28,987 nt of DNA from Gemmatimonadota bacterium. Its GTDB lineage: Bacteria > GCA-2686955. The notes under the pieces were generated by a model. That model saw only the letters and a list, made by a program, of their open reading frames with translations. It made no database searches and had not been told where the DNA came from. A program made the translations under genes and the position numbers. Location: assembly GCA_002686955.1 (NCBI GenBank), contig NYZA01000051.1, forward strand, positions 1 through 28,987, given 5' to 3'. Shown here piece by piece: positions 1,507 to 16,587 of the stretch; the stretch's first letter is position 1; each line of letters opens with the position of its first letter.

Positions 1507-1601
1507 GATTTGGCCCTCCGGCGCCGGGCTTGGCCCGCGCACGGGAAGAGGTTCTATTTGCTCTTCATGTCCCGCGTCGATCGGTCGGCGGGACGGGGCC
1601 T

Positions 1602-1620
1602 CCTCGAGCAGGGCTCGAGG
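1602..1620. other. Stem-loop in the TIGR02530-flgE gap
   Basis: A perfect 7-bp inverted repeat (CCTCGAG / CTCGAGG) with a 5-base loop sits in the 136-base space before flgE, the longest gap in the operon. No T-run follows on the minus strand, so it is not a classical intrinsic terminator. It could slow transcription, stabilise the downstream flgE message, or be chance in GC-rich DNA. Confidence 0.4.
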
Positions 1621-1642
1621 TCCGGCCCAGATTCGGTTTCGA

Positions 1643-2023
1643 TCAGATCATTACCGCGGCATCGATCCCGGTGTAGACGTGCGCCCGTGCTTCCGCGCTG
1701 GTATGCGCGGTGACGACCACTCGATTCGGAATATTGACGACGAAGGCACGATCTTCCTGGAGCAGTACGGCGTCGCGTGCCCCCTTCGCGGCAGCGGCGT
1801 CGACGGCTTGTTCCAATGCTTGTTGGTCTCGATCGTCGAGTCGTATGCCGCGACTCTGAAGGCGGGCCGTCGCATGGGCCGAGAATCGGACCGGCTCGGG
1901 CAGCTCCTTCCGAAGCGCGTCGGCGAACTCGGTCGAGCTCCGCGGGGGCGCATTGGAGCGCGACTCCGGGGGCCGAGCGGCTACGCCCGCACCAGCAATG
2001 CGTGCAAGTGTGATTCGGTCCAT
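1643..2023 (-). CDS. Flagellar operon protein of the flgD-flgE interval (TIGR02530-like)
   Basis: A 126-residue protein starting 3 bases after flgD stops. It matches what is known of the TIGR02530 flagellar operon family: a small soluble protein typically encoded between flgD and flgE in Firmicutes, Geobacter-type and Bdellovibrio-type genomes, with no settled function. Visible features are a Pro/Arg/Ser-rich N-terminus (about residues 12-40), then a compact part with RFSAHATARLQSRGI and the end AFVVNIPNRVVVTAHT. The RFSxHAxxRLxxRGI stretch and the VVNIPNxVVVTA strand are the traits I recognise. There is no signal peptide or membrane segment. Assignment rests on these motifs plus position. 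A role in hook assembly or its timing is inferred from context only. Confidence 0.75.
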   Translation of the reverse strand: MDRITLARIAGAGVAARPPESRSNAPPRSSTEFADALRKELPEPVRFSAHATARLQSRGIRLDDRDQQALEQAVDAAAAKGARDAVLLQEDRAFVVNIPNRVVVTAHTSAEARAHVYTGIDAAVMI

Positions 2024-2026
2024 AGC

Positions 2027-2728
2027 TTAGATCTCCTCATCGGGTGGGTCGGTGTTGACGGAATCCTGTTCATTGATCTCGAGTACATCTGAGAGCAGAA
2101 CGACACGTTCGCCGAGCAAGAGGACCGATCCCCCTCCGCCGAAGCGGACGCCGGTGACGGTGCCGGATGTGAAGGTCTGCGTTTGAACGAGCTCTCCGGT
2201 ATCGGAAGTGGCGGAGACGGTGAATGTGTAGTCGCCGGCCGCGAGATCGTTGCCGTAGCCATCCTTGCCGTCCCACTCGATCGTGTTTCTTCCCGTCGAC
2301 ATGGCGGACTCCTCGATCGTGCGAACGGTCGAGCCTGCGCTGTCGGTTATAGTGATCGTCACATCGGCATCGGACTGAAGCTCGAAAGTGAGATCGTGTG
2401 TCTCCGAAGAAGTGTCGCGGTCGATCGCGTTCCCATAGGCAAGCACCTCCTTTCCGATGAACGAAGTCGTCAGGGAGTTGGTGTTGCCCTGGATGAGTGA
2501 TTGCTGCGCTTCGATGTTCTCGTTGACGAGTGTCATCTGCTCGAGAGCCGAGAACTCGGCGAGCTGCGCAACGAAGGCGGTGTTGTCCATCGGTGAGAGG
2601 GGGTCCTGGTGGCTGAGCTGGGTCACCAGCAGCTTCAGGAATTCGTCCTTGCCGAAGTCGGACGATTGGGCGGCCGTTTGGGGAGAGGTGGGGTCGCTCG
2701 GGTTGGGGTTGGTCGGTGTAACTTCCAT
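2027..2728 (-). CDS. flgD: Flagellar hook cap / scaffolding protein FlgD
   Basis: FlgD caps the growing hook, guides FlgE polymerisation, and is later replaced by the filament junction proteins. The 233-residue protein has the canonical FlgD N-terminus (FGKDEFLKLLVTQLSHQDPL at about 25-44, then FVAQLAEFSALEQM), which carries the export signal and cap contacts. It is followed by an Ig-like FlgD domain (about 125-190, with VTITITDSAG and IEWDGKDGYGNDLAAGDY) set in a Tudor-like beta fold that ends near LLLGERVVLLSDVLEI. The start is an ATG with an AAAGGA Shine-Dalgarno 6-7 bases upstream. It lies directly after fliK and before the TIGR02530 gene, as in the Bacillus fla/che order. The length is normal for the family. 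Confidence 0.95.
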   Translation of the reverse strand: MEVTPTNPNPSDPTSPQTAAQSSDFGKDEFLKLLVTQLSHQDPLSPMDNTAFVAQLAEFSALEQMTLVNENIEAQQSLIQGNTNSLTTSFIGKEVLAYGNAIDRDTSSETHDLTFELQSDADVTITITDSAGSTVRTIEESAMSTGRNTIEWDGKDGYGNDLAAGDYTFTVSATSDTGELVQTQTFTSGTVTGVRFGGGGSVLLLGERVVLLSDVLEINEQDSVNTDPPDEEI

Positions 2729-2751
2729 CTGTGTTCCTTTCGTATTTGGGA

Positions 2752-4536
2752 TCAGACGACCAGATCGAGCTGACCCGCTATAAGGGCGGCGCGGCGGGGC
2801 GGGGAGCCCCCCGGCTCAACTTCTGGAAGCGACGAAGTCTCCGGAGTCCGCCGGCGCGGGCGGGCGGGACGCTCCGGCCGATGGTCTTGACCTCCGCCGA
2901 CGGAGACCTCGAGGCCACCGAAAGTAATGCCGTTTCTGGTCAGGGCGGCCTTGAGCGATCCGAGTCGACTTTCCAACGCGATTCGGGCCGCTTCGGTTTC
3001 GACCCTGATGAAGGCATGCACTCCGCGTTGCTCATCAGAGCGGATCTCGATTCGCAGACGACCGAGGTCATCGGGGTCGATGTGCAAACGGAGCTCCTGG
3101 CCTTTTCGCGCTATGCGAAGGTCGGAACGGCGGTTGAGGGTCTCGAGCAGTTCATCGAGGCGGAGCTCCACCGGGGCTTTGGGGGAGGAAGAAGCGTTCG
3201 GTGTGGCGGGCGCGCCTGGCTCCTGAGGCGCTTCGACGCCCGGGGCGGAGAGCGGTTGGGTCGGGGCTGCGTGAGATGGCGCTGGAATCGGGCGCTCGAC
3301 GGTGACCGAGCTCTGCTGGGACTCGGCGGGGGAGGCGCCTGGAGAGGAATCCGGGGGAGTCGAATCGGCCCGATGAGGATTGCTGGCTGCCGGAGCCGGA
3401 TCCCGCTCGATCGCCTGAGCGGCGGGTGTTGCTCCCTTGAGCGGCATCGACGGCGTTTGTCTATTATTCGGATCTGTTGGCGATTCGGGCGGTCGTGACT
3501 CGGTGGCCGGCGGCGGTACAGGGCGAGGAGCCTCGCGCTGCGATTCCGGAGCCGCGGTGGGGGAGGGGGGAGGCGCCGGCTCGGAAGCCGGGATCGACCC
3601 CGCAGGGGTTGGGATCGGGCGCGATGACGCGGAACCCGAGCGGGGCTCGCCGATCGGCCGGAGATGACCCGGAGATTGGGTGCCGGAATGGGGAGTCATT
3701 CGCTCACGAACCCCTGGGGCTGGAGCCGATACGGGTGCTCGATCGCCGGGAGAGATCGGGTATCCATGGCGAGCGGCCGCAAGCAAGCGTGCGATTGCGC
3801 CGAGTCGCACCGGTGCTCGGATGCCCTCATCGCCGAGGGCGGTGCGGGAATCGTTCGACGAGCTGGACTCGACGCTGGGCGGCCCCGCCGTCCGGGAGAT
3901 CGATAGGGGAGGCACTCGCCTTTGTTCGAGCGGTGCCGGGCGGTTGGATTCGAAGCGCCGTCGCGCGAGCGCGGCGACCCGATCGCTTACTTCGATCGGT
4001 GATGGGGGTGATGTCTTGCCGATCTCCGGGTCGGCTGGGACGGCGGATGGCTGGGCCGGAGCACGCGTCTGTCTTGCGGGCGCCGGCTCGATCCGGACGC
4101 TCGTCCACTGGACCTGTTGAGGCCGGTGGGCCGTCTTCGAGCGGACGGGAACCGCTTCTTCATGGGGAGAGGAGGCGCCGACTTTTCTCGTCGCATTTGA
4201 CGCGAGGCCCCCTCCGGCTCGAACCAGCGGCCCCAGGAGCGCATCGATCCGCGTGGCCGGCCTCTCTTCAAGGCTTGGGTCGGCGACCGCCGGGAGCTCG
4301 ATCGCCTCTGCTTCTCCTCTCCCCCTGTCCGGCGCCTCTGGGGACTCCGCCCACGTCGATGCCCCGAGCAGCCGGTCGAAGAAGGGAGAGCTCTCCGCGT
4401 CATGAGTCTCCTCGCCTTCGATCGCGGGCGCAGCGGGATCAAGCAGACGTGCACTGCGGGCACCACCCCGCTCAGGCCCGCCGTCGATTCGATCCCCCAT
4501 AATCGAGGGCACCCAGGAGAGGAGATCAACCGCCAT
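2752..4536 (-). CDS. fliK: Flagellar hook-length control protein FliK
   Basis: FliK is a secreted molecular ruler that measures the hook and triggers the export switch through FlhB. The 594-residue product has a long low-complexity middle (about 130-440) very rich in Pro, Ala, Ser and Glu, typical of the extended ruler part. A C-terminal Flg_hook domain follows (about 460-555), recognisable by LRLHIDPDDLGRLRIEI and the following VHAFIRVETEAARIALESRL. A basic/proline tail of about 40 residues ends the protein. The ATG overlaps the end of motE by 11 bases, and a GAAGGGGATGG purine stretch inside motE serves as ribosome binding site, suggesting translational coupling. An in-frame ATG 12 codons later is an alternative start. 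The ruler region is poorly conserved by nature, so the call rests on the C-terminal domain and operon position. Confidence 0.9.
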   Translation of the reverse strand: MAVDLLSWVPSIMGDRIDGGPERGGARSARLLDPAAPAIEGEETHDAESSPFFDRLLGASTWAESPEAPDRGRGEAEAIELPAVADPSLEERPATRIDALLGPLVRAGGGLASNATRKVGASSPHEEAVPVRSKTAHRPQQVQWTSVRIEPAPARQTRAPAQPSAVPADPEIGKTSPPSPIEVSDRVAALARRRFESNRPAPLEQRRVPPLSISRTAGPPSVESSSSNDSRTALGDEGIRAPVRLGAIARLLAAARHGYPISPGDRAPVSAPAPGVRERMTPHSGTQSPGHLRPIGEPRSGSASSRPIPTPAGSIPASEPAPPPSPTAAPESQREAPRPVPPPATESRPPESPTDPNNRQTPSMPLKGATPAAQAIERDPAPAASNPHRADSTPPDSSPGASPAESQQSSVTVERPIPAPSHAAPTQPLSAPGVEAPQEPGAPATPNASSSPKAPVELRLDELLETLNRRSDLRIARKGQELRLHIDPDDLGRLRIEIRSDEQRGVHAFIRVETEAARIALESRLGSLKAALTRNGITFGGLEVSVGGGQDHRPERPARPRRRTPETSSLPEVEPGGSPPRRAALIAGQLDLVV

Positions 4537-5137
4537 CGGCCATCCCCTTCACCCGCACGCTTTTCGGCGGCTTCGCTCCGGAGAGTAGCGTGGAGAGCTC
4601 GACGGCGCGGGAGGGGTCGAGCGCCGCCAGAATCTTCGCGCTTTGACGCGGCTTCAGGCGCGCCAGCACTTCGGCCGCCAACCCGAGATCGAGCCCCCTC
4701 AGCACCCGGGCCGCGTCGACCGGTTTCATCGAATCGTAGAGCTTGGCCAACTTGGCGATCTCGGCGCCGCGCCTGGCCGAGAGTGTGTCGGTGAGCGCGG
4801 CCATCAGATTCTCTACCAGCCCGCGCTCATTCAGGCTGGTCTCGCGATCGATCTCGATCCTTGCCTCGATCGCGAGGAGCTCCCGCTTCTCCTCTCTGAG
4901 CAGATCGCGCTGATTGAGAAGGGAATCCCACTGGATGAGCAGCTCGGAGGATTGCAGAGTCTCGTCTCTCAGCGAGGCAACGATCTCAGCATCCGATTCG
5001 CGCAATCCGAGCGCGACCAGGCCTTCTTCCACGGTGATCCGTCCGGTCACGAAGAGCATCGCTTCGAAGACCAGCGTCATTGAGAGAAGGGTCAACAGGA
5101 TCGGAATGGCATTGGAGCCGGTCTTGCGGTCGGCCAT
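4526..5137 (-). CDS. MotE/YlxF-like flagellar protein with MgtE_N-type domain
   Basis: A 203-residue membrane-anchored protein. It has one N-terminal transmembrane segment (about 11-31), a charged coiled-coil stretch (about 45-110), and a C-terminal MgtE_N-type helical repeat (about 125-187) with the lines KLYDSMKPVDAARVLRGLD, AAEVLARLKPRQSAKIL and AALDPSRAVELSTLL. This is the layout of MotE, a periplasmic chaperone of the stator protein MotC in alphaproteobacteria, and of YlxF, encoded between fliJ and fliK in Bacillus. The position here is identical (fliJ ends 3 bases before it, fliK overlaps its end). The anchored topology would place the coiled coil and MgtE_N part outside the cytoplasmic membrane. 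Function in this organism is inferred: probably stator or basal-body assembly. It is not a magnesium transporter, since it lacks CBS and channel domains. Confidence 0.8.
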   Translation of the reverse strand: MADRKTGSNAIPILLTLLSMTLVFEAMLFVTGRITVEEGLVALGLRESDAEIVASLRDETLQSSELLIQWDSLLNQRDLLREEKRELLAIEARIEIDRETSLNERGLVENLMAALTDTLSARRGAEIAKLAKLYDSMKPVDAARVLRGLDLGLAAEVLARLKPRQSAKILAALDPSRAVELSTLLSGAKPPKSVRVKGMADGG

Positions 5138-5140
5138 CGC

Positions 5141-5575
5141 CTACTCCCCCTTCCTGCGAGCGGCCAGCTCGTCAATTCGAGCGACCTCTTCTTTGAGCGA
5201 GGCCTGCCGGTGCCGCTCCCTCTCAATCTCGCGAAGCGTCTCCAGTCGCCGCGCCTCGACGCGCGCATTGCGCAACGCATTTCGCGCGGCGGCGACCGCT
5301 TGCGAGCACCCGGATAGAGACGCTTCGGCCTGCGCGAGGGCTTCCGCGGAGTCGACGAGATAGTCGGACAGAGCGGAACGCTCTTCGACGGCAAGGGGGC
5401 CGGGTGGCGTGTGGCCTACCTCGATCGCCTTCACCCGCGCCGTTTCGATATCGAGCACTTTCCCCCTCGCCACGTCCTCCTTGTCGACCGCGCGCACGAG
5501 GGCCGTCCGGCGCTCACGCGTCGCCTGATTCAAGATCTGAGAGAGCACGTCAAGGCGGAATCGGAATCGCTTCAT
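5141..5575 (-). CDS. fliJ: Flagellar export apparatus protein FliJ
   Basis: FliJ is the central stalk of the export ATPase; it couples FliI to the FlhA export gate and escorts chaperones. The 144-residue product is almost entirely heptad-rich, charged helix beginning MKRFRFRLDVLSQI, a typical FliJ start, and ending in a Lys/Arg/Glu-rich helix. The length matches E. coli FliJ (147). The ATG overlaps the fliI stop in an ATGA arrangement, with GGAGG just upstream inside fliI, so the two are likely translationally coupled. Sequence conservation of FliJ is weak; position directly after fliI is a large part of the evidence. Confidence 0.88.
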   Translation of the reverse strand: MKRFRFRLDVLSQILNQATRERRTALVRAVDKEDVARGKVLDIETARVKAIEVGHTPPGPLAVEERSALSDYLVDSAEALAQAEASLSGCSQAVAAARNALRNARVEARRLETLREIERERHRQASLKEEVARIDELAARRKGE

Positions 5576-6897
5576 GACGCACCTCCGGCGCCGGGTGCGA
5601 GCAGGCCGGCCAGCCCCGCCAGGGTCTCGTCGAAGAGCGCAACCTCGCTCCGGTCCTGAGCGAGATAACGTGCGATCGGCTCGTGGAGCTGCACGGCGCG
5701 ATCCACATCGGCCGCTCCTCCAGGTCGATACGCCCCGATTCGCACGAGGTCCTCGACTTCGGCATAGGTCGCCATGATGCGCCTCAGCTCCGCGTCGAGC
5801 CGGGTGTGCGCCGCGTCGGTTACGTCCTCCATGACGCGGCTCTTGCTGCCCAGAAGATCGATCGGTGGATAATGATGCCGCTGCGCGAGGGCCCTCGACA
5901 GCACGATGTGTCCATCCAAGACCGAGCGCATATGGTCGGCCACCGGTTCATCGAGATCGTCTCCCTCGACCAGGACCGTGTAGATCCCCGTGATGCTGCC
6001 CTCGGCCGCCGTCCCTGCCCGTTCCAGAATCCTCGGAATGAAGCTGAAAACCGAAGGGGTGTAGCCGCGCGTGGTGGGCGGCTCTCCGGCGGCGAGTCCG
6101 ATCTCACGCTGTGCCATCGCCACGCGCGTGATCGAGTCGACCAGGAGCATCACGTCCTGGGCATCGTCTCTGAAGTGCTCCGCGATCCTGCACGCGGTCG
6201 CCACCGCATGCACCTTGCGTATCGCCGGTTCGTCGGAGGTGGTCACGACCACCACGGCTCGCCGAAGCCCCTCGTCCCCCAGGGAGTCCTCGATGAACTC
6301 CTTCACCTCGCGCGCCCGCTCTCCTACGAGGGCGATGACGCTCACATCGGCGTCGGTGCCTCGCGCCAGCATCCCCAGCACGGTCGACTTGCCGACCCCG
6401 CTCCCGGCGAAGATCCCGACCCGTTGCCCCTTGCCGAGAGTGATCGCCGCATCGATCGCACGGATCCCGGTGGAAAGCGGTTCCGAGATCCGCTTGCGGG
6501 CCAGCGCCGAGCGTTGGCGACTCTCGATCGGTACGAGGGTGGTTCCGGTCAGGGGACCCCGATCGTCGATCGGCCGGCCCTGTGCATCGATCACCCGCCC
6601 GAGCAGTCCCGGCCCGACCGGGGCGCCCATCGGGGAGCCGGTCGGCTCGATCGAGCTGCCGGGCGAAATCCCTTCGAGCTGGTCGAAGGGGGTGAGCACC
6701 AACCGAGCTCCCCGGAATCCAACGACGACGGCACCCGCGCTCGGACGGCCATCGGGGCTCAGAATGTGGCAGAACTCCCCAACAACGGCCTCGACCCCCC
6801 GCGCGATCAGGATCGAGCCGGAGACCTCCTCCACCCGACCGATCCGCCGAATCGTCTCAGCCGATCGGATCGCGGCGATCGCGGCATGCTGCGTCAT
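5572..6897 (-). CDS. fliI: Flagellum-specific ATPase FliI
   Basis: The cytoplasmic hexameric ATPase of the flagellar type III exporter, homologous to F1-beta; it acts with FliH and FliJ at the base of the motor. The 441-residue protein has the N-terminal beta-barrel, Walker A AGSGVGKST (164-172), GERAREVKEF (192-201), Walker B MLLVD (250-254) followed by SITRVAMAQREIGLA, and TTRGYTPSVFSFIPRILERAG (about 275-295). All are hallmark FliI/SctN motifs. I chose the ATG at 6897 because it overlaps the fliH stop as ATGA and has GAAGAAGGG upstream. A longer reading from 7005 would add 36 Arg/Gly-rich residues that are only the fliH frame shadow. Given the surrounding basal-body genes it is flagellar rather than an injectisome ATPase. 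Confidence 0.97.
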   Translation of the reverse strand: MTQHAAIAAIRSAETIRRIGRVEEVSGSILIARGVEAVVGEFCHILSPDGRPSAGAVVVGFRGARLVLTPFDQLEGISPGSSIEPTGSPMGAPVGPGLLGRVIDAQGRPIDDRGPLTGTTLVPIESRQRSALARKRISEPLSTGIRAIDAAITLGKGQRVGIFAGSGVGKSTVLGMLARGTDADVSVIALVGERAREVKEFIEDSLGDEGLRRAVVVVTTSDEPAIRKVHAVATACRIAEHFRDDAQDVMLLVDSITRVAMAQREIGLAAGEPPTTRGYTPSVFSFIPRILERAGTAAEGSITGIYTVLVEGDDLDEPVADHMRSVLDGHIVLSRALAQRHHYPPIDLLGSKSRVMEDVTDAAHTRLDAELRRIMATYAEVEDLVRIGAYRPGGAADVDRAVQLHEPIARYLAQDRSEVALFDETLAGLAGLLAPGAGGAS

Positions 6898-7721
6898 TGC
6901 GATCGCCCTTCTTCGGCCCGGGCGGGACCGGAGTCCACGCTTGTCGACGAACGCTCCGAATCCCCCGCATCCCGTTGCTCCACAGCTTCCGCCTCGATGT
7001 CGCAATCGGCCTCCGCGACCCGCTCGTTCGAGTCCTCCTGTAGGGCCTTGGCCAGGGCCTCACCGACACGATCGAGCTGCCGCCCAATCCTCGCATCGAT
7101 CGTGGTCTCGCCCGCTTCGACGAGGCAGCCACCCCGCTCGATTTCGGCATCGCCGACGAGTTGGAGCGCGATCGTTCCGAGCGACTCCACCTCGGCTTTC
7201 CGCAGATGCGCGGCATCCTTCGGGTGCAGTCGCACGCGCACCCTTTCTGTGTCGGGATCGACCGCGTCGATGCACTCGGCCAGCACCCGTCCCGCCACGT
7301 CCGGATCGAGCTCGACGACCCACCGAACGATCCGAGCAGCCAGCTCCACCGATATCGCTCCGATCCTCTTCGCCGTTTCGTGTTGCAGCCCCTCCATCTG
7401 CTCCGAATGCGCGCGCACGAGCTCCTCGACGAGCCCACGGGTCCGTTCCGCCAGAATCTCGATCCGCAGCTTCTCCTTCTCCGCCCGCCGCTGCTCCCGC
7501 CGCGCCGAGGATTCCGCGGCCGCCACCGCTTCGCGCCGGCCCTCTTCTCGCCCCTTCGCCTCCGCGGCGTCGAGACGCACGGCGACCTCCGCTTCCCATT
7601 CGGCGCGCAACGACTCCGGCGAGGGCCGCTCCGCGCGGGCCTCGATCGGGCTCCGCACCGGCAGCCGCACCCGTCCACTCTTGAAGACGGGACTGGAACA
7701 GAAGCTCGCTCTAGTAGACAA
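6894..7721 (-). CDS. fliH: Flagellar assembly protein FliH
   Basis: FliH binds FliI as a dimer, regulates the ATPase and links it to the C-ring. The 275-residue protein has an Arg-rich start, a long charged coiled coil (about 45-110), and a conserved C-terminal region (about 115-225) with ISVELAARIVRWVVELDP, VRVRLHPKDAAHL and AEIERGGCLVEAGETTIDARI, the last being the typical FliH/SctL GGCxVxTxxGxIDA-type motif. The start is a TTG at 7721 that overlaps the fliG end by 11 bases, with AGGGGAGGAG immediately upstream; a GTG about 17 codons in is an alternative. After the FliI-binding region there is an unusual acidic, Ser-rich tail of about 45 residues. Because FliH is poorly conserved, the start is less certain than the identity. 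Confidence 0.88.
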   Translation of the reverse strand: MSTRASFCSSPVFKSGRVRLPVRSPIEARAERPSPESLRAEWEAEVAVRLDAAEAKGREEGRREAVAAAESSARREQRRAEKEKLRIEILAERTRGLVEELVRAHSEQMEGLQHETAKRIGAISVELAARIVRWVVELDPDVAGRVLAECIDAVDPDTERVRVRLHPKDAAHLRKAEVESLGTIALQLVGDAEIERGGCLVEAGETTIDARIGRQLDRVGEALAKALQEDSNERVAEADCDIEAEAVEQRDAGDSERSSTSVDSGPARAEEGRSQ

Positions 7722-8742
7722 ACTCCTCCCCTCCGCTACCGCGTGCGGCGCCGGCGATCTCGCCTTCCTCTTCGAGCTTGCGCACGACGGCCACGATCTT
7801 CTGCTGCGACTCCTCCACGTTTTTGAGCTTCACCGGACCCATCACCTCGAGCTCGTCGGCGAGCGTCTGAGCGGCTCGTGTCGACATATTCTTGAAGATG
7901 TGCTCTCTCAGCTCCGGCGACGCGGCCTTCAGGGCAAGAGTGAGATCGGATGTCTCGATGTCTTTCATGACGCGTTGCACCGAGCGGTTGTCGAGCAGCA
8001 TCAGATCCTCGAAGACGAACATGCTGTTGCGGATCTCTCCCGCGATCTGCGCGTCTTCGGTGTCGATCCCCTCGATGATTCGCTTCTCGGTCGTACGATC
8101 CGATTCGAGCAAGATGTCGACGATCGCCTGCACTCCGCCGATCCCCGATTCATCGCGGGTCGAGAGATTCTCGGTCGTGCTCGACAGGATCCGTTCGACC
8201 TCGCGCACCATTGCGGGGCTCACCGCATCCATCGTTGCGATGCGGTAGCCCACGTCGCCCTGGATGTCCTCGTTCATCCGGCTCAAGATGTCGGCCGATT
8301 GACGCGCGTCGAGGTGGGAGAGCACCAGCGCGATCGTCTGCGGGTGCTCGTTCTGGATGAAGTTCGCCAGCTGCGCCGGATCGACCTTGCGCAGAAGCTG
8401 GAAATCGCGGCGTTCCAGTGCGCACTGCACACGGCGAAGAAGCTCTTGAGCTTTCCCCCCACCCATGGAGGATTTCAGCAAATCGCGGGCGTACTTCATG
8501 CCTCCGAGGGAGATGTACTCCTGGGCCAGAGCCAGCTCGTAAAACTCCTCGAGCACCGAGGCACGCACCTGCTTGGGAATGACCTTCAGATCGGAGATCT
8601 CCAGAGCGAGCTGTTCCACCTCGTCGTCGCCGAGATGGGCGAAGATCTTCCCCGCGACTTCGGGACCGAGCGCGACCATCAGAACGCCGGCCTTCTGGCG
8701 ACCGACCAGGCTCTCGTACTTCAGCTCAGTGACTTCGGGCAT
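7711..8742 (-). CDS. fliG: Flagellar motor switch protein FliG
   Basis: FliG is the C-ring protein that contacts the MotAB stator and transmits torque; its N-terminus binds FliF. The 343-residue length is standard. Visible features are the N-terminal domain (AGVLMVALGPEVAGKIFAHL), the EHPQT motif (132-136) of the middle domain followed by IALVLSHLDARQSADIL, the GGVQAIVDILL helix, the MFVFEDL segment (241-247) of the C-terminal domain, and the charged torque helix DNRSVQRVMKDI (251-262). It starts at an ATG 3 bases after the fliF stop. No key charged positions appear to be missing. Identity is not in doubt. Confidence 0.98.
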   Translation of the reverse strand: MPEVTELKYESLVGRQKAGVLMVALGPEVAGKIFAHLGDDEVEQLALEISDLKVIPKQVRASVLEEFYELALAQEYISLGGMKYARDLLKSSMGGGKAQELLRRVQCALERRDFQLLRKVDPAQLANFIQNEHPQTIALVLSHLDARQSADILSRMNEDIQGDVGYRIATMDAVSPAMVREVERILSSTTENLSTRDESGIGGVQAIVDILLESDRTTEKRIIEGIDTEDAQIAGEIRNSMFVFEDLMLLDNRSVQRVMKDIETSDLTLALKAASPELREHIFKNMSTRAAQTLADELEVMGPVKLKNVEESQQKIVAVVRKLEEEGEIAGAARGSGGEEFVY

Positions 8743-8745
8743 CGG

Positions 8746-10275
8746 CTACCTCCGCTCCTTCTGCGGCGCATCCGCCAACCAGGTTCGCACGAGCTGAGCG
8801 ACGTTCTCGGGGCTGTCGACGGCGAGTCCGGTCACCTCTTCATGGATCTGACGGCGTCGCTCCTCCTCGACGGAGATCTCGGCCTTCTCGAGGCCCATGA
8901 ACTCCGGATCATCGCTCCCTTCTCTCGCCTTGAAGGCGGAATCGAAGTGGGGGAACAGTCGGAGCAAGCGCTTGATCGGTCGATAGGCCGAGATGATGCC
9001 CACCAGGAGGATCAGGCGCAGGGCGATGGTGTAGATGAGATCGTTGCGTTGGGCCTGCTCGATGGCGGCCTGGTAGCCATGCTCGACCGTTCGATCGAAC
9101 TGCTGGTCCATCACGGTCACAATGTCGCCGCGTTTCGTGTCGGAGCCCAGGGCCGAGCTGACCATGCTTCGGATCCTCTCCAGCTCCTCGGCGGTCCTCG
9201 GCACATACTGCGGGCCTTCGTCGCTCTCGGTGTAGGTCCCCTCGACAAAGACGGCGGCGGAGAGGCGCAGAATCGACCCGGGTGCCGACGCGACACGTTC
9301 GACCCGGGTGTTCAGCTCGTAGTTGGTGATCGAGCTTTCCGATCCACCCTCATCGACGGCCCCGGTTTCCTCTTTTCGCTCCTCGGAACGCACCGATGAG
9401 CGATCGGGATCGTAGGTGGTGACCTCTCGTTCCACGGCGTTGAAATCGAGGGTCGCGTTGACCGCCACGGTCGAGCGGTGTGGACCGAGCACGTCTCCCA
9501 GCAAGATGCTCACCTTCTCGGAGAGGTGCGTCTCCACGTCGCGCTGCAGCTTCAGCCGGCGGTCGGAGAGCAGCGCTTCGGAGTCGGTTCTCCCTCCTCT
9601 GGCCAGAAGGCGACCGAGGGAGTCGGTCACGGTCACCTGGTCGGGCGAAAGACCGGAAACGGCCGCCGCGACCACGCGCCGAATCGAGTCGACACGGTCA
9701 CCGGAGAGGTTGACGCCCGGAACGAGAGAGAGCATCACGGCGGCCGTCGTCGGAACCTTGTCCTCTTCGAAGAGCACGTCGGGGGCGACAGCCAGATGGA
9801 CCCGGGCGTCCTTGACCTCGAGGATGCCGACGAGGGTGGTCTCGATCTCCTGCTCCTGCGCACGCAAGAGCTTCGCATCGATCACTACCTGGGTTTCGCC
9901 GAGGCCGGAGCCCTCGAGCAGGCCGAGGCCGGAGCGCTTGTTGCGCGGGAGGCCGTCCTTGGCGAGCGCGAGGCGTGCCTCGATGACGCGATTCGGGGGG
10001 ACGAGCACCGCCGCGCCGGTCTCCCCCAGCCGATATGGGATCTGGAGCGCGGTGAGCCGCTCGGTGACCAATCCGGCGTCTTCTAGCGAGAGATTGGTGT
10101 AGACCGGCCGGTATTCCGCCCCTCCGCCCTCCGAGAGGCCGCGCGCGAGCAGGAGCACGACGGCCGCCGTGATCACGACGGCGATCGCGATATGCGCGAA
10201 CGCCGGCAGCGCACGAAGCCGCGGCAGAGCGCTTTCGTTGAACCACGCTGTCAAAGACTGCATCGATTCGGGCAA
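8746..10275 (-). CDS. fliF: Flagellar MS-ring protein FliF
   Basis: FliF forms the MS-ring in the cytoplasmic membrane, the base on which rod, C-ring and exporter assemble. The 509-residue product has two membrane helices (about 28-45 and 412-432) around a periplasmic part with ring-building motifs (VYTNLSLEDAGLVTERL, LGLLEGSGLGETQVVIDAKL, VSGLSPDQVTVTDSLGRLL). It ends in a cytoplasmic tail with NVAQLVRTWL, the FliG-binding sequence. The start codon is TTG at 10275 with GAGAGG about 9 bases upstream; the ATG four codons later has no ribosome binding site at a useful distance. Length is a little below that of enterobacterial FliF (about 552). It is followed at 3 bases by fliG. Confidence 0.97.
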   Translation of the reverse strand: MPESMQSLTAWFNESALPRLRALPAFAHIAIAVVITAAVVLLLARGLSEGGGAEYRPVYTNLSLEDAGLVTERLTALQIPYRLGETGAAVLVPPNRVIEARLALAKDGLPRNKRSGLGLLEGSGLGETQVVIDAKLLRAQEQEIETTLVGILEVKDARVHLAVAPDVLFEEDKVPTTAAVMLSLVPGVNLSGDRVDSIRRVVAAAVSGLSPDQVTVTDSLGRLLARGGRTDSEALLSDRRLKLQRDVETHLSEKVSILLGDVLGPHRSTVAVNATLDFNAVEREVTTYDPDRSSVRSEERKEETGAVDEGGSESSITNYELNTRVERVASAPGSILRLSAAVFVEGTYTESDEGPQYVPRTAEELERIRSMVSSALGSDTKRGDIVTVMDQQFDRTVEHGYQAAIEQAQRNDLIYTIALRLILLVGIISAYRPIKRLLRLFPHFDSAFKAREGSDDPEFMGLEKAEISVEEERRRQIHEEVTGLAVDSPENVAQLVRTWLADAPQKERR

Positions 10276-10306
10276 GGAAGATCGCCTCTCGGGGCTGGTC
10301 TTGGGA

Positions 10307-10651
10307 TCAGATCTGCATCCGCATCACTTCCTGGTACGATTCGACCAGGCGATTTCGGATCTGGATCATGAGCGAAAGAGAGAGTCGGGCCTCTTCGACC
10401 GCGACGGTCACCTGGTGCACATCGGTGACCTCACCGGTCGCGAGTCCGGTCAGCTGGGCGTCGGCGTGCTTCTGCGCCCCGTCCACCTCGGCGATCAGCC
10501 TGCGGGCGGTCTCGGCGAAGCCGCTAGCCTCGTTCGCGCTCGCCGCGTCGCGCTCCGGTTTGGAGGGCAAGGGACGGGGGGATCCACCGAGGCGGTTCGG
10601 ACCCACATCGAGGGGTCGGGTGCGGCCGCCGATCTCGGGAAGAGTGCTCAT
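10307..10651 (-). CDS. fliE: Flagellar hook-basal body protein FliE
   Basis: FliE joins the MS-ring to the proximal rod and is an early export substrate. The 114-residue protein has a disordered Pro/Arg-rich first 40 residues and a helical C-terminal half ending VEEARLSLSLMIQIRNRLVE then SYQEVMRMQI, the standard FliE ending. A GAGGAG ribosome binding site lies about 7 bases before the ATG. It stands between the small 76-residue gene and fliF, with 31 bases to the fliF start. The length is normal (E. coli 104). Confidence 0.95.
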   Translation of the reverse strand: MSTLPEIGGRTRPLDVGPNRLGGSPRPLPSKPERDAASANEASGFAETARRLIAEVDGAQKHADAQLTGLATGEVTDVHQVTVAVEEARLSLSLMIQIRNRLVESYQEVMRMQI

Positions 10652-10668
10652 GTCTCGACTCCTCGGCT

Positions 10669-10899
10669 CTAGGCCCTCAGATCTACGTTGCGCCCTTTGG
10701 CCAGCTCGGCGACCGGATCGGGCAAGGTCCCATCTTCGGCGGTGGAGAGGAGCTCATCGATGAAGGCTCGCTCCTTGGCGCTGACCGCGGGTCTTTCGGC
10801 GCTTCCCTCCGGCTTGGGTGTGGGCGCCGGTTGCGTGGCCTGCGGCACACGGAGCTGATGCTGGTAGCGGGCCAGCAGCTGCGTTGCGTCGAGTCTCAT
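10669..10899 (-). CDS. Small unrecognised protein inside the flagellar operon
   Basis: A 76-residue ORF between flgC and fliE. A strong AAGGAG Shine-Dalgarno 6 bases before the ATG, a 17-base gap to fliE, and the same strand and GC-rich codon use make it a real gene. The N-terminus is amphipathic (MRLDATQLLARYQHQL), the middle is Pro/Ala-rich linker (about 20-38), and the C-terminus is a predicted helix (AKERAFIDELLSTAED) followed by DPVAELAKGRNVDLRA. There is no signal peptide, membrane segment or cysteine. It is small, acidic and partly disordered like a type III export chaperone, an anti-sigma factor (FlgM type) or a rod accessory, but I see no FlgM signature. I do not recognise a family. 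It is absent from the classical Bacillus and E. coli orders, where fliE follows flgC directly. Confidence 0.72.
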   Translation of the reverse strand: MRLDATQLLARYQHQLRVPQATQPAPTPKPEGSAERPAVSAKERAFIDELLSTAEDGTLPDPVAELAKGRNVDLRA

Positions 10900-10942
10900 C
10901 TACCGCTCCTTGCTCGGGTCGATCGGTGCCGCGTGGCCGTCA

Positions 10943-11446
10943 TCAGATGTCGAGCGCCCGCATGGCCATCTGCTTGGCGGCTTCGATCGCGGTGGCGTTC
11001 GCCTCGTAGGCACGCGAGGCGGCCATCAGCTCGCCCATCTCGGTCACGATATTCACCGCCGGATAACGCACATAGCCGTCGGCATCGGCGTCGGGGTGGT
11101 TGGGATCGTGTACGAGGGGGCCGAGCGCGCCGGAATCCCGCACCTCGACGGTCACCGAGACCTCGCCGGAGGGATCCTCGATTCGGTTCGGAAGGACGCC
11201 GGTCGGCAGATGCCGGCCGTCGCTCGTTCCAAGTCGTGATGGCCCTTCGCGCATCCGCTGAGTGAGCCGTTCGGCGAAGTCGGTGCCGCGGAAGACCGTT
11301 TCCTTGCGACGGTACGGTCCCCCCTCGTCGGTTCTCGTCGTCTGTGCATTCGCGATGTTCTGCGAGATCACATTCATCTTGACGCGCTGGGCCGCCAGGC
11401 CGGCCGCGCTGATTCGCAGGCTTCCGTGAATTCCAGGTTCGGGCAT
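10943..11446 (-). CDS. flgC: Flagellar proximal rod protein FlgC
   Basis: FlgC is one of the proximal rod proteins that cross the periplasm; it is exported without a cleaved signal. The 167-residue protein begins with the axial domain (ISAAGLAAQRVKMNVISQNI followed by ANAQTTRT) and ends with the family motif HDPNHPDADADGYVRYPAVN then EMGELMAASRAYEANATAIE. It starts 15 bases after flgB stops and is followed by 43 bases and then the 76-residue gene. A slightly longer loop than usual (about residues 60-95) sits before the conserved C-terminus. Length is somewhat above E. coli FlgC (134). Confidence 0.96.
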   Translation of the reverse strand: MPEPGIHGSLRISAAGLAAQRVKMNVISQNIANAQTTRTDEGGPYRRKETVFRGTDFAERLTQRMREGPSRLGTSDGRHLPTGVLPNRIEDPSGEVSVTVEVRDSGALGPLVHDPNHPDADADGYVRYPAVNIVTEMGELMAASRAYEANATAIEAAKQMAMRALDI

Positions 11447-11461
11447 CGATCACTCCCTCGC

Positions 11462-11887
11462 TCAACCGCCCGGGCGGCCGTTGATCGAGTTGCGGAGCAT
11501 CCCGATCTTCGTCTTCATGTAGTGCGTCATCGTTTGATAGCGAATGTTCGTGTCCGCGAGCTCGGCCATCTCGCGGTCGATATCGACGTTGTTGACTCCC
11601 GAGGCGAGCTTGCGGTCGTCGGCACGTTCGATTCGAGGTCGCAGTTCGTCCACCGTGCTCCGCCCGAGCGGCAGGTGCGCGCTGTCGTCTCTAGCCCCTC
11701 GCATACGACCGCTCGTATTCAGCGCATCGCGCAGATCGTCCTCGAAGGGCACCTTCATGCGCTGATAGCCGGGTGTGGCGATGTTCGCCATGTTGCTGGC
11801 GATCGCCCGTTGCCGGGTCGCATAGGCGTCCATCGATCGCGTGATGACCGGAAACACCTTGTCGGAGAAGAGAATGCGTCGAAGCAT
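11462..11887 (-). CDS. flgB: Flagellar proximal rod protein FlgB
   Basis: FlgB is a proximal rod subunit and the first gene of this flagellar operon. The 141-residue product shows QRAIASNMANIATPGYQRMK (about 28-47), equivalent to the conserved NIANxxTPGYK motif, then a variable loop, and the C-terminal helix VDIDREMAELADTNIRYQTM. The ATG at 11887 has AAAGGTG about 7 bases upstream. The leader is very short: the sigma-54 promoter lies only about 35 bases before the start codon. Length matches E. coli FlgB (138). Confidence 0.96.
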   Translation of the reverse strand: MLRRILFSDKVFPVITRSMDAYATRQRAIASNMANIATPGYQRMKVPFEDDLRDALNTSGRMRGARDDSAHLPLGRSTVDELRPRIERADDRKLASGVNNVDIDREMAELADTNIRYQTMTHYMKTKIGMLRNSINGRPGG

Positions 11888-11920
11888 GGCGCACCTTTCG
11901 CGGGTTTGGTGCGTCGCACG

Positions 11921-11937
11921 AGCAATCGTCGTGCCAA
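11921..11937 (-). promoter_or_regulatory. Sigma-54 (RpoN) promoter of the flagellar operon
   Basis: Read on the minus strand the site is TTGGCACGACGATTGCT. It matches the sigma-54 consensus TGGCACG-N4-TTGC(A/T) in every conserved base, with exactly 10 bases between the invariant GG (11935-11934) and GC (11923-11922). The predicted transcription start near 11910 gives a leader of about 23 bases to flgB. A sigma-54-dependent response regulator is encoded about 6.6 kb to the right. Confidence 0.88.
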
Positions 11938-12010
11938 GATCTGATAAGCAGCCAAGTCGTTGTTGGACTGGATCGAAGGCTCGCGGAGCGATCCTCCTTT
12001 GCTAGATGAT

Positions 12011-13415: not shown

Positions 13416-13428
13416 GCCCACCGCCCAA

Positions 13429-13515
13429 GGGTCCGCGCGAGAATGACTTGTCATTTGGCATCCCATCTGCGGCACATCTGGGCGCCAAGATGACAAGTTT
13501 TTGTTGCGCGGACCC
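13429..13515. repeat. Palindromic repeat element, copy 1
   Basis: An 87-bp imperfect palindrome. The outer arms GGGTCCGCGC / GCGCGGACCC (13429-13438, 13506-13515) are perfect. The inner arms at 13447-13459 and 13484-13497 pair over 13 bases with one bulge. The right half (13465-13497, 33 bases) recurs exactly, inverted, in copy 2 at 14079-14111. Size, nested stems and conserved ends resemble a REP/MITE-type element; no transposase is visible nearby. Confidence 0.75.
13447..13503 (+). terminator. Likely intrinsic terminator after the hydrolase gene
   Basis: The inner stem of the palindromic element (13 paired bases with one bulge) is followed directly by TTTTTG at 13498-13503 on the plus strand, about 30 bases after the hydrolase stop codon. 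This has the shape of a Rho-independent terminator, supplied by a repeat element. The long loop (about 24 bases, which can form a further short CCCA/TGGG stem) makes it less compact than usual. Confidence 0.55.
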
Positions 13516-13584
13516 CAAGAAAAGCGAATCCAGGGGCGTCCTTTGTTTCGGGAGCACAGTAGCTCACCACGAACGGAGGACCCC

Positions 13585-14034
13585 ATGAAGTTCACAGCCA
13601 AGTTCCAAACCGTCTGCTCCGCCGCACTGCTCACTGTCGCTTCTCTGATTCTGACCGCTCCGGCAAGCGCCGTCGACTGGGCGGCCCTGGAAGGGGATTT
13701 CGACTTCGACAGCGTTGATTGGGTCGAAGTCGGCGAGGACAACGTGCTCGCCATCGAGATCCAGGGCAGTTGGCAGGGTGCGTGCGAGCGCGCCAACCAG
13801 GTCGTCTACACCGGCGGGCGCAAGGACATCACGGGATCGGTGACCAACACCGGCGAATGCCCTCTGCAGATCATCGGCAGGAAGGGTCGCACCGTCGTTT
13901 TCGACACGGGCGCCCTGGCACCCGGGGCCACCATCCTCGTCGGCGGATGCGTGGATTCCGTCAAGGTCAACTGTGGAGACCAGGGGCTCCAGTGCTCGTT
14001 CCGCTACAACATTTCGATCGGGCCTTGCCAGTAG
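13585..14034 (+). CDS. Small cysteine-rich secreted protein, unknown family
   Basis: A 149-residue protein starting at an ATG with GGAGGA 5 bases upstream. A clear signal peptide covers residues 1 to about 29 (AALLTVASLILTAPASA, cleavage after ASA). The mature part of about 120 residues is acidic at its start (LEGDFDFDSVDWVEVGEDN) and then beta-rich with six cysteines (in QGACERAN, GECPLQ, GGCVDSVKVNCGDQ, LQCSFRY and the C-terminal GPCQ), enough for three disulfides. The pattern of alternating hydrophobic strands suggests a small beta-sandwich domain. I do not recognise the family and infer no activity. The gene stands alone between two inverted palindromic elements, so it may belong to a mobile or recently acquired cassette. 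Confidence 0.75.
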   Translation: MKFTAKFQTVCSAALLTVASLILTAPASAVDWAALEGDFDFDSVDWVEVGEDNVLAIEIQGSWQGACERANQVVYTGGRKDITGSVTNTGECPLQIIGRKGRTVVFDTGALAPGATILVGGCVDSVKVNCGDQGLQCSFRYNISIGPCQ

Positions 14035-14060
14035 ACAACGAGCTAGCTGGATCGAGGTTA

Positions 14061-14137
14061 GGGTTCGCGCAAGAATAGCTTGTCATCTTGGCGCCCAGAT
14101 GTGCCGCAGATCTGGTCGATCGGTGAGTTCCGAACCC
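14061..14137. repeat. Palindromic repeat element, copy 2
   Basis: A 77-bp element whose ends GGGTTCG (14061-14067) and CGAACCC (14131-14137) are inverted. Bases 14079-14111 are the exact reverse complement of 13465-13497 in copy 1, and its first 26 bases align with the left end of copy 1 with a few changes. It begins 27 bases after the small secreted gene stops and ends where GH13-like coding similarity begins. Confidence 0.75.
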
Positions 14138-14450
14138 GGAGGAGCAGCAGTGCTACTTCGAGGATTTCGGGGCTCGCCGATTGGCCGATTGTGGTGCAGA
14201 TGGACTGCGTTTCGACGGGCAGTGGGATGAGAACTTCGTGCATCCGATTCGAGACACCATCATTCGCACCGATGACCCCGGGCGAAATATGTACGCCGTT
14301 GGGGATGCGATTGAACATGGCTACAATCTAGACACTTTCGGTGACTTTGGAAGCTCTGTAGTCACCGCACAGGCCGGGAGCTGGGACGGTATGGACCAGC
14401 ACGGATCGATCTCGATCGCGCCCTACAGGGCGTTGAGCCTCTCGCAATAG
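14138..14450 (+). pseudogene. Fragment of a GH13 (alpha-amylase family) glycosidase
   Basis: An open stretch of about 104 codons without a credible start codon or ribosome binding site. The translation contains CYFEDFGARRLADCGADGLR then FDGQW, the pattern of conserved region II in GH13 alpha-amylases and branching enzymes (DGxRFD, with the catalytic nucleophile Asp), followed by VGDAIEHGYN where the acid/base Glu of region III would be expected, and a tail IAPYRALSLSQ like the helix after region IV. The catalytic (beta/alpha)8 barrel is far from complete: the N-terminal 200 or more residues, region IV and the C-terminal domain are absent. The similarity starts at the end of palindromic copy 2 and stops where a further repeat-end-like sequence begins. 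It is most likely a decayed remnant, not a functional protein. Confidence 0.5.
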
Positions 14451-14464
14451 GGTTTGCGCGAGAT
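14451..14464. repeat. Possible third repeat end (partial)
   Basis: GGGTTTGCGCGAGA matches the first 14 bases of each palindromic element with two differences, and follows the GH13 remnant stop codon directly. It touches the stop codon of the minus-strand membrane gene. No matching inverted arm was found nearby, so chance similarity is possible. Confidence 0.35.
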
Positions 14465-16587
14465 CAACTCGCCACTGGCGTGCCCGCCGGCGCCGGCCGC
14501 AGCAGGACGGCGGCCGCGCCGTAAGCGATCAGCGCGCACAGGGCGAACGCCGTCTGGCCGAAGGGGATCAACGTGAAGAAGATGAGCGCCATGGCGGCCA
14601 GGGCGCCGAGCGCGTCGGCCAGCAGGCTGGAGCCCACCAGCTCGTGGCGCGCCGCCGCCAGGCCGAGCGGGAAGAAGATCCCCATCAGGACTCCAGCGGG
14701 GAACAAGGTCAGGGCAGGGAAGAGCTCGCGGATCCACCATCGCGCCTCGGCGAAGGGGATCCATGCCAGCGCCGCGAGATGGAGCGCCAGCACCAACACC
14801 GTGCCGGCGACCCGCGGGAGGACCGCCAGGGCGCGCGGCGGTAGGCGGTGCGCGAGCGCGCTGCCGATCGCACCGTAGACCAGGAAGTAGATGACCAGTC
14901 GAACCATGGTGTGGACCTGGTCCACAAAGAAGCCGCGGTAGGCGTGAACGGTCGCGAGCTGCATGCAAGTATGGGCAACGCCGATGGCGAAGAAGAAGAT
15001 GATCGGATTCCAGGCGGGTCCCGGCGTCACCCGCCGGCGCAGCACCACGAGCCCCGCGATGCAGCCCGCCACCAGCCCCGCCGCCATCCGCACGAGTTGT
15101 CCCCGTACGCCAGCCTCCAGGATGCCCCAGCTGAAGAAAGGAGTGTCGTCGCGCAGCCGATAGCGGGTCCGGGGCGCGTGATCCAGGAAGGGCCGCTCCA
15201 CCTCCAGCCCGAGTGCCTCGATCTTCTCGTCGAGCGCCTCCGCATCGCGGCAGGCGAGGATCTGAACGTGTCCGGTGCCCGGGTCGTGGAAGGTCCAGTG
15301 AGGCGCCCCAAGCTCCTTGAGCGAGAGCACGATCTGGGCGGGCAGGTAGCGGTGCGGTCGGGTCACCACGTTGGCCAGGCCGATGAGCAGGAAGCCGGTA
15401 TCTGTGAGGCGCTCCAAGTAGGTGGCAATCGCCTCCTGCGTGTAGAGATAGCGCGGTCTCACGGCGGCGGAGAAGCCCTGAGTGCCGACCCATCGGGCCG
15501 ACTCGATGAGAATCGCGTCGAGATCGCCGGGATGCTGCTCGGCCACGGTGCGACCGTCGGCGGCGACCGCGTTGACCCGCTTGAAGAGCCCGCCGTTCCA
15601 CTCCGGATGGCGATCGCGCAGGACCCTCACGACCGTGGGATCGATCTCGACCGCGGTGATTCCGGCGTGTGGTGCGAAGGGAAAGGAGTAGAGCCCGCGC
15701 CCGCCGCCGGCGCCGATCACCAGCGCCCGGCCCTCGGGTGGCAGGAGGGCGTAGATCCGCTCCCTCAGGTCGTCTTTTGGGCCGCGTAGCGACTCCGGTC
15801 CCGTCAGCCACATGAAGTGGTAGTTGTAGAAGGCCCCGATGCCCGCCCCGACCGCGCCCGCATCGACGAATCGGAGCTGTGAAAGACGGCTCCAGCCGTG
15901 GAAGAGCGGTGTTTCGAGCTGGTCGTAGAGCGGCTGGAAGCGCGACGAGATGGCGCGGCCGCGGCTGCCCAGCCGAGGGGCCAGGAAGTCGTAGCGTTTG
16001 CCCAGGTCCTGCTCGGTTCGACGCAGGCGCTCGAGCTGCCAATCCAGGTCTAGGGGCGGCGCGGCCCAGAGCACGCCGGCCAGCACCACGATTCCCAGGC
16101 GCGGCAGGAGCAGGAGCGAGAGACTGGTCGCCACCACGATCACGTTGGCGCCGGCCGGGGCGACCAAGAGATCGAAGCCCAGGTAGCCCACCACCAGTCC
16201 CAGCAGGTGGACCGCCCATCCGCGACCCACCCAGCGCGGCCCGGCGCGATGTGCCTGGCGCAGCAGCGGCCCCAGCGCCAGTCCGATGCACACGAACCAG
16301 GCGCTGAGGGTGATGAGGTGGGCGGTCGCCGCGACTCTCAGCTCGCCTGGGTCCACGGTCATGAAGTGCGCCCGGAGTGAGACGGCGAAGAAGGCGAGCA
16401 GCGCCAAACCGGCCGCGCGCGAGGGAGCCGAGGCTCGCAAGCGCGGCAACCAAGCCTGGCCGGCGGCGGCGCCCAGCCCCACGCAGGCAAAGGCCACCGG
16501 GTAGAGGAAAAGCACCAGGGTGCGGGTCAGGATGCCCTGGCGGCTGAGGGTGACGCCGAGCTGCAGCGCCACCGCAAGGTGCGTCAA
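14464..16587 (-). CDS. Polytopic membrane protein with spermidine-synthase-like domain; 5' end probably frameshifted
   Basis: At least 707 residues: N-terminal membrane helices (to about residue 175), a cytoplasmic methyltransferase-fold domain (about 265-440), and 5-6 C-terminal helices (about 495-700). The central domain has a nucleotide-binding glycine loop ALVIGAGGGRG (288-298) and an acidic strand end TAVEIDP (311-317), as in the SpeE-like fused membrane proteins. The aminopropyl-transfer residues of true spermidine synthases are not evident, so polyamine synthesis should not be assumed. The listed start is a TTG without a ribosome binding site. The frame stays open upstream and encodes more hydrophobic sequence (ASLFHIGLALS), so the true start is earlier. 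Adding one base to the G-run at 16623-16628 would join it to an ATG at 16664. It is convergent with the GH13 remnant. Confidence 0.75.
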   Translation of the reverse strand: MTHLAVALQLGVTLSRQGILTRTLVLFLYPVAFACVGLGAAAGQAWLPRLRASAPSRAAGLALLAFFAVSLRAHFMTVDPGELRVAATAHLITLSAWFVCIGLALGPLLRQAHRAGPRWVGRGWAVHLLGLVVGYLGFDLLVAPAGANVIVVATSLSLLLLPRLGIVVLAGVLWAAPPLDLDWQLERLRRTEQDLGKRYDFLAPRLGSRGRAISSRFQPLYDQLETPLFHGWSRLSQLRFVDAGAVGAGIGAFYNYHFMWLTGPESLRGPKDDLRERIYALLPPEGRALVIGAGGGRGLYSFPFAPHAGITAVEIDPTVVRVLRDRHPEWNGGLFKRVNAVAADGRTVAEQHPGDLDAILIESARWVGTQGFSAAVRPRYLYTQEAIATYLERLTDTGFLLIGLANVVTRPHRYLPAQIVLSLKELGAPHWTFHDPGTGHVQILACRDAEALDEKIEALGLEVERPFLDHAPRTRYRLRDDTPFFSWGILEAGVRGQLVRMAAGLVAGCIAGLVVLRRRVTPGPAWNPIIFFFAIGVAHTCMQLATVHAYRGFFVDQVHTMVRLVIYFLVYGAIGSALAHRLPPRALAVLPRVAGTVLVLALHLAALAWIPFAEARWWIRELFPALTLFPAGVLMGIFFPLGLAAARHELVGSSLLADALGALAAMALIFFTLIPFGQTAFALCALIAYGAAAVLLRPAPAGTPVAS

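What the first reader, a model, noticed from the sequence alone, without database searches (positions are those of the whole stretch)
13429..14137. Two inverted palindromic repeat elements bracketing one small gene
An 87-bp and a 77-bp palindrome share a 33-base segment that is perfectly identical in inverted orientation (13465-13497 and 14079-14111), and both have inverted terminal arms starting GGGT(C/T)CGCGC. Perfect identity beside diverged arms suggests recent copying or gene conversion. They could be REP-like or MITE-like elements, and the enclosed gene could move or invert as a cassette between them.
Basis: seen in the sequence. Interest (0 to 1): 0.6.

Follow-up and report, generated by a model that had tools for sequence, protein, structure and literature searches.

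The report
Small jumping DNA hairpins (MITE family)
The two palindromes are two damaged copies of a small, gene-less jumping DNA element with about 100 copies in this bacterium's genome; the element family is new, but the kind of thing is well known.

Summary
The 87-bp palindrome (13429-13515) and the 33-base inverted identity are real. The "77-bp palindrome" is not a hairpin: 14061-14203 is the left four fifths of a 179-bp element whose right end is lost.

Both belong to one interspersed family: at least 96 copies in the sequence fetched, 152 terminal-repeat matches in the 4.28-Mb draft against 0 in controls. Sizes are discrete (40, 87, 98, 179/180 bp). Terminal inverted repeats read GGGTYCGCGCAAGAATARCTTG, and flanks carry a 3-bp target duplication at C|TNA|G; window copy 1 has CAA/CAA. 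It is therefore a MITE family, probably moved by an IS5/PIF-Harbinger-type transposase. No such transposase was found in the draft, and RAYT is not supported. The shared 33-mer is family consensus (20 exact copies), so gene conversion or a mobile cassette is not needed.

Two features are less ordinary. The same terminal repeat sits on unrelated interiors in a Lentisphaerae MAG and two of its relatives. The 179-bp interior also pairs by G-T wobble on one strand only (294 G-T against 12 A-C cells; 45 against 29 in the terminal repeats), and this bias is absent from private mutations. That suggests past selection on the mobile lineage, not on resident copies.

The parts
13426..13428 (.). left copy of the 3-bp target-site duplication, CAA
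   Evidence: flanks read ccCAA|GGGTCC...GGACCC|CAAga
13429..13515 (-). 87-bp copy of the MITE family: internally deleted derivative of the 179-bp form, consensus orientation on the minus strand
13429..13450 (+). terminal inverted repeat (right end in consensus orientation)
   Evidence: GGGTCCGCGCGAGAATGACTTG, 2 mismatches to the family repeat
13494..13515 (-). terminal inverted repeat (left end in consensus orientation)
   Evidence: GGGTCCGCGCAACAAAAACTTG, 2 mismatches
13516..13518 (.). right copy of the target-site duplication, CAA
13585..14034 (+). enclosed gene: 149-aa protein with a signal-peptide-like N-terminus, no Pfam or NCBIfam match; not part of the element
14061..14203 (+). copy 2: nucleotides 1-145 of the 179-bp form, right end lost (profile match extends to 14209)
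14061..14082 (+). intact left terminal inverted repeat of copy 2
   Evidence: GGGTTCGCGCAAGAATAGCTTG, 0 mismatches
14100..14198 (+). internal hairpin of the truncated 179-bp copy
   Evidence: fold of 14061-14203, z -4.7
14204..14450 (+). sequence that replaces the lost right end; open frame with a weak glycoside-hydrolase-like match, probably a gene remnant
   Evidence: PF14872 E 0.16, below cut-off; 89-aa ORF 14181-14450

Best explanation
The palindromes are two copies of a non-autonomous DNA transposon (MITE) family. The full element is 179-180 bp. It has terminal inverted repeats starting GGGTYCGCGCAAGAATARCTTG and a long palindromic interior. A transposase made elsewhere recognises the two ends, excises the element and inserts it at C|TNA|G, duplicating 3 bp. 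The target and duplication point to the IS5/PIF-Harbinger (PHIS) class of DDE transposases. After insertion, slippage across the central hairpin between direct repeats AGATGTG at positions 37 and 129 deletes 92 bp and gives the 87-bp form (window copy 1). A deletion between AGAT at 48 and 129 removes 81 bp and gives the 98-bp form. Copy 2 lost its right end. Copies settle between genes, mostly just after a stop codon, and then decay. Shown: copy number, ends, sizes, target duplication, deletion repeats and context. Inferred: the class of transposase, movement in trans, and slippage as the deletion route.
For: 81 places for a 21-nt core and 152 for the 22-nt terminal repeat in the own genome, 0 for reversed controls. 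Discrete lengths: 179 x18, 180 x10, 87 x10, 40 x3 among 59 paired copies. At least 96 distinct loci in the stretches fetched. Direct 3-bp flank identity in 28 of 58, shuffle mean 10.0, maximum 20 of 2000. Rebuilt empty sites read CTNAG in 16 of 55 against at most 1 at any shifted offset, and TNA in 39 of 55. Repeat spacing of 92 and 81 bp predicts the 87- and 98-bp forms exactly. 49 of 55 copies intergenic by a rough gene caller; in tandem gaps 26 of 30 lie nearer the upstream gene's 3' end, median 13 bp. The C|TNA|G target is described for NuwaII of the PHIS superfamily, and TWA for PIF/Harbinger (PMC4482050).
Against: No autonomous partner was found. Pfam PF13586 and PF13359 are absent from this draft and from the two genomes searched with it. 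The two PF01609 matches in the draft are not flanked by this repeat; one is an IS701 transposase. The draft is 84.5% complete and no contig under about 6 kb was met, so a multi-copy IS could be missing. No empty site in a close relative could be compared: the only relative held lacks the family.
Confidence: 0.85

Rival explanations
1. REP/BIME elements moved by a RAYT (HUH/Y1 transposase) through single-stranded DNA.
For: Extragenic palindromes near gene 3' ends; the interior hairpin pairs on one strand only; weak antisense bias relative to the upstream gene, 20 to 10, or 16 to 4 within 30 bp of its stop.
Against: One Y1 match in the draft, a truncated IS200 TnpA. A 3-bp target duplication and long matched terminal repeats are not features of REP or IS200/IS605 elements.
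Confidence: 0.05
2. Static gene-end hairpins (terminators or mRNA 3' stabilisers) kept by selection at each site.
For: Median 13 bp from the upstream stop codon in tandem gaps; very stable folds.
Against: About 100 near-identical copies with precise ends and target duplications, no T-tract or intrinsic terminator, and private mutations with no bias towards keeping the fold, G-T 9 against A-C 8. A secondary effect on mRNA remains possible.
Confidence: 0.06
3. The two copies bracket a mobile or invertible cassette that carries the small gene.
For: Inverted orientation and an enclosed single gene.
Against: Copy 1 has its own target duplication, copy 2 lacks its outer end, the sizes differ, and the gene is present once. 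Recombination between any two of about 100 copies could occasionally invert the segment, as for any dispersed repeat.
Confidence: 0.03

Closest known systems
Bacterial MITEs such as QMITE2 of Coxiella burnetii, Chunjie of Geobacter, Correia/CREE of Neisseria, and ERIC (review PMC10969869)
   Same: Under 500 bp, terminal inverted repeats, palindromic, mostly intergenic, tens to over 100 copies, truncated and internally deleted forms; QMITE2 is about 190 bp and mostly in 3' untranslated regions
   Different: Different sequence and target: 3 bp at C|TNA|G here against 7-9 bp for QMITE2; the same 22-bp end carries unrelated interiors in other genomes; strand-specific interior
PHIS transposons (PIF/Harbinger, NuwaII) and bacterial IS5 family (PMC4482050)
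   Same: 3-bp duplication; target TNA, extended C|TNA|G, exactly that given for NuwaII; terminal repeats starting with G (the last point from my own knowledge of IS5)
   Different: No transposase found; that paper gives ANT for bacterial IS5, so the subgroup is unknown
Type II MITEs (identity with the partner confined to the ends)
   Same: Only the outer 22 or so bp are shared between genomes while interiors differ
   Different: No partner IS known
REP/RAYT elements
   Same: Extragenic palindromes near gene ends; single-strand hairpin asymmetry
   Different: Target duplications, 179-bp unit with long terminal repeats, no RAYT

Membership tests
Bacterial MITE | short, gene-less, many interspersed copies | tested here: met
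   40-182 bp apart from one 237-bp compound copy; at least 96 loci
Bacterial MITE | conserved terminal inverted repeats with precise ends | tested here: met
   59 paired copies with discrete lengths
Bacterial MITE | target-site duplication | tested here: met
   3 bp in 28 of 58; shuffle mean 10, maximum 20
Bacterial MITE | related autonomous element with the same ends | tested here: inconclusive
   none seen in the 84.5%-complete draft or around the ends read in three other genomes; drafts are broken at these repeats and a partner is often missing for MITEs
IS5/PHIS-mobilised element | 2-4 bp duplication, AT-rich TNA-type target | tested here: met
   C|TNA|G (PMC4482050)
IS5/PHIS-mobilised element | cognate DDE transposase acting on these ends | tested here: inconclusive
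   PF13586 and PF13359 absent, PF01609 matches unrelated; draft incomplete
REP/RAYT | RAYT (Y1) gene in the genome, flanked by the repeat | tested here: not met
   only a truncated IS200 TnpA
REP/RAYT | no target duplication | tested here: not met
   duplication present
Known RNA family | match to an Rfam model | tested here: not met
   0 in the window at gathering score; only below-threshold matches elsewhere
Mobile or invertible cassette | shared outer target duplication or intact outer ends | tested here: not met
   copy 2 lacks its outer end; copy 1 has its own duplication

The most novel reading that the evidence does not exclude
The element is a DNA transposon whose interior must form a hairpin on one particular strand in order to spread: the mobile lineage was selected as a single-stranded RNA or DNA hairpin, while its ends act as ordinary double-stranded transposase sites. 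Resident copies then decay without that constraint. One end sequence shared across phyla drives unrelated interiors of this design.
Probability: 0.2. Interest if true: 0.75.

Novelty: new member of a known kind. Interest (0 to 1): 0.38.

Why it matters
It describes a MITE family in a phylum of which only two genomes are held here, and a 22-bp end sequence shared with a Lentisphaerae MAG, which implies a transposase lineage that crosses phyla. The contrast between shared and private changes in the interior gives a way to ask, from sequence alone, whether a hairpin is needed for movement or for host function. For this window it explains the repeat and removes the cassette and gene-conversion ideas.

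Tried and rejected
RAYT/REP: searched Y1_Tnp, found only a truncated IS200 TnpA. Autonomous IS: terminal-repeat scan of the own genome shows only short elements or pieces; PF01609, PF13586 and PF13359 gave no partner; the IS701 gene at C143 lies between different inverted repeats. Rfam, plasmids and phages, viral contigs: nothing. Literature: no paper held prints the end sequence. Strand asymmetry in the Lentisphaerae elements: not seen in the two complete ones (-113.8 against -117.1; -163.0 against -162.5). Gene conversion between the two window copies: unnecessary.

Full report
WHAT IS THERE. The window is G000:C51, part of a 4.28-Mb, 270-contig draft that is 84.5% complete. The palindrome at 13429-13515 is real: 37-nt arms, RNA fold z -8.8 and DNA fold z -7.9 with no shuffle as stable. 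The second 'palindrome', 14061-14137, is not a hairpin (z -1.4; 22 of 200 shuffles at least as good). It is the start of a longer homologous stretch, 14061-14203, that matches nucleotides 1-145 of the 179-bp family consensus at 90% and folds internally. The right end is gone. The sequence that follows contains an open frame with a weak, sub-threshold glycoside-hydrolase match.

IT IS A GENOME-WIDE FAMILY. A 21-nt core occurs 81 times with up to 3 mismatches, 0 for the reversed control. The terminal repeat GGGTYCGCGCAAGAATARCTTG occurs 152 times, control 0. A profile of the aligned copies gives 96 distinct loci in the stretches fetched. Pairing the ends gives 59 copies in discrete sizes, mainly 179/180 and 87 bp, with 98/99 and 40 bp as well. 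Several contigs end inside a copy, as expected when a repeat breaks an assembly.

IT TRANSPOSES, OR DID. In 58 copies with flanks the 3 bp on either side are identical in 28; shuffling partners gives 10.0 on average and at most 20 in 2000. The rebuilt target is C|TNA|G: 16 of 55 read CTNAG exactly against at most 1 at any shifted position, and 39 of 55 have TNA. Window copy 1 carries CAA on both sides. This target is described for NuwaII of the PHIS superfamily, the group of PIF/Harbinger and bacterial IS5, and TWA is given for PIF/Harbinger (PMC4482050). The class of transposase is therefore an inference from the target. No such gene was found, but a multi-copy IS could easily be missing from this draft.

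HOW THE SHORT FORM AROSE. The 179-bp consensus holds AGATGTG at positions 37 and 129, 92 bp apart, and AGAT at 48 and 129, 81 bp apart. Deletion between them gives 87 and 98 bp exactly. The 87-bp copies differ at the junction (CC, GT or GG between the repeats), which suggests more than one deletion event. Copy 1 is such a derivative; copy 2 is a truncated full-length copy in the other orientation. They are independent insertions.

CONTEXT. By a simple codon-usage gene caller, 49 of 55 copies are intergenic. In 30 tandem gaps, 26 lie nearer the upstream stop, median 13 bp from it and 97 bp from the next start. Orientation is weakly antisense to the upstream gene (20 to 10, p 0.10; 16 to 4 within 30 bp, p 0.012). 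The caller is rough, several cut-offs were tried, and I do not rest on this. No intrinsic terminator or sigma-70 promoter is seen at the window copies.

OTHER GENOMES. The only other genome of its family and phylum held here has no copy. An exact scan of one genome per species finds this end sequence only in Lentisphaerae bacterium RIFOXYA12_64_32 (9 contigs; 23 ends with mismatches), on unrelated palindromic interiors with the same CTAA/CTTA flanks and TTA duplications at the two complete copies. Records of the window's own or very near genomes may be left out of that scan. Two relatives of that MAG carry close variants of the end, 10 each. Only the ends are shared. The Lentisphaerae MAG is large (10.6 Mb) and binning error cannot be excluded, but the interiors differ from those of the window genome, so it is not contamination by this genome.

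A STRAND-SPECIFIC INTERIOR. On 32 full-length copies the whole-length hairpin pairs in 94.9% of cells, with 30 pairs changed on both sides (shuffles 15.9, slid versions at most 11). Mismatch type is skewed on one strand: in the interior 294 G-T against 12 A-C cells, in the terminal repeats 45 against 29. All 32 interiors fold better on the forward strand, mean difference -28.7 kcal/mol; the ends alone differ by -2.1. The pairing was taken from the forward fold, which favours G-T. A register that also fills the symmetric loops keeps the skew (342 to 41 over the whole element), and the register from the reverse strand's own fold still gives 69 to 35 in the interior. Consensus pairs in the interior are 8 G-T and 0 A-C. 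Minority pair types are 25 to 10. Singletons, the most recent changes, are 9 to 8; shared ones are therefore 16 to 2 (p 0.001; shared against singleton, Fisher p 0.027). So the skew belongs to the spreading lineage or its founder and is not kept up in resident copies. Copies share ancestry, so these are not independent events; a founder that already had many G-T pairs, for example a captured RNA hairpin, would give much of the signal. The two complete Lentisphaerae elements show no skew.

VERDICT. A MITE family, new in sequence but of a known kind. The cassette, gene-conversion and RAYT ideas are not supported. The strand-specific interior and the cross-phylum end sequence are the parts worth following.

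Noticed in passing
window 14450-14471: A decayed look-alike of the terminal repeat (GGGTTTGCGCGAGATCAACTCG, 5 mismatches, flank caata) overlaps the 3' end of the minus-strand gene 14464-16572; could be a third, very old end or chance.
   Followed up: partly
G000 C1:14958-15136, C240:4566-4745, C165:12302-12480: Copies whose two arms belong to different subfamilies of the inner terminal-repeat segment (for example CTTGTCAT on one side and CTAGCGAG or GAATGCTA on the other), as if by recombination within the conserved interior.
   Followed up: no
G000 C181, C93, C17:4471, C197: A second end type, GGGTCGGCGAAGAAATA, on both ends of some copies, with mixed copies at C139, C56, C58 and C17:5509; may reflect a second transposase specificity.
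   Followed up: no
G000 C8:32786, C176:6984: 40-bp elements that consist of the two terminal repeats only, still with a TAA/TAA duplication.
   Followed up: no
L160, L168 (Lentisphaerae MAG) and L181-L193: The Lentisphaerae-group interiors share a motif, roughly CGAGG...CATA-loop-TATG...GACCGAGTAACG, with repeated GA internal loops; the window family has tandem GA/GA loops too.
   Followed up: partly
window 1-12000 and 24388-28985: Flagellar gene cluster (fliI, fliH, fliG, fliF, flgC, flgB) followed later by topA, xerC-like and hslV-like genes; only two genomes of this phylum are held, both about 84% complete.
   Followed up: no
window 13585-14034: Single-copy 149-aa secreted-protein candidate with no family match and no homologue in the other two genomes searched.
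   Followed up: partly
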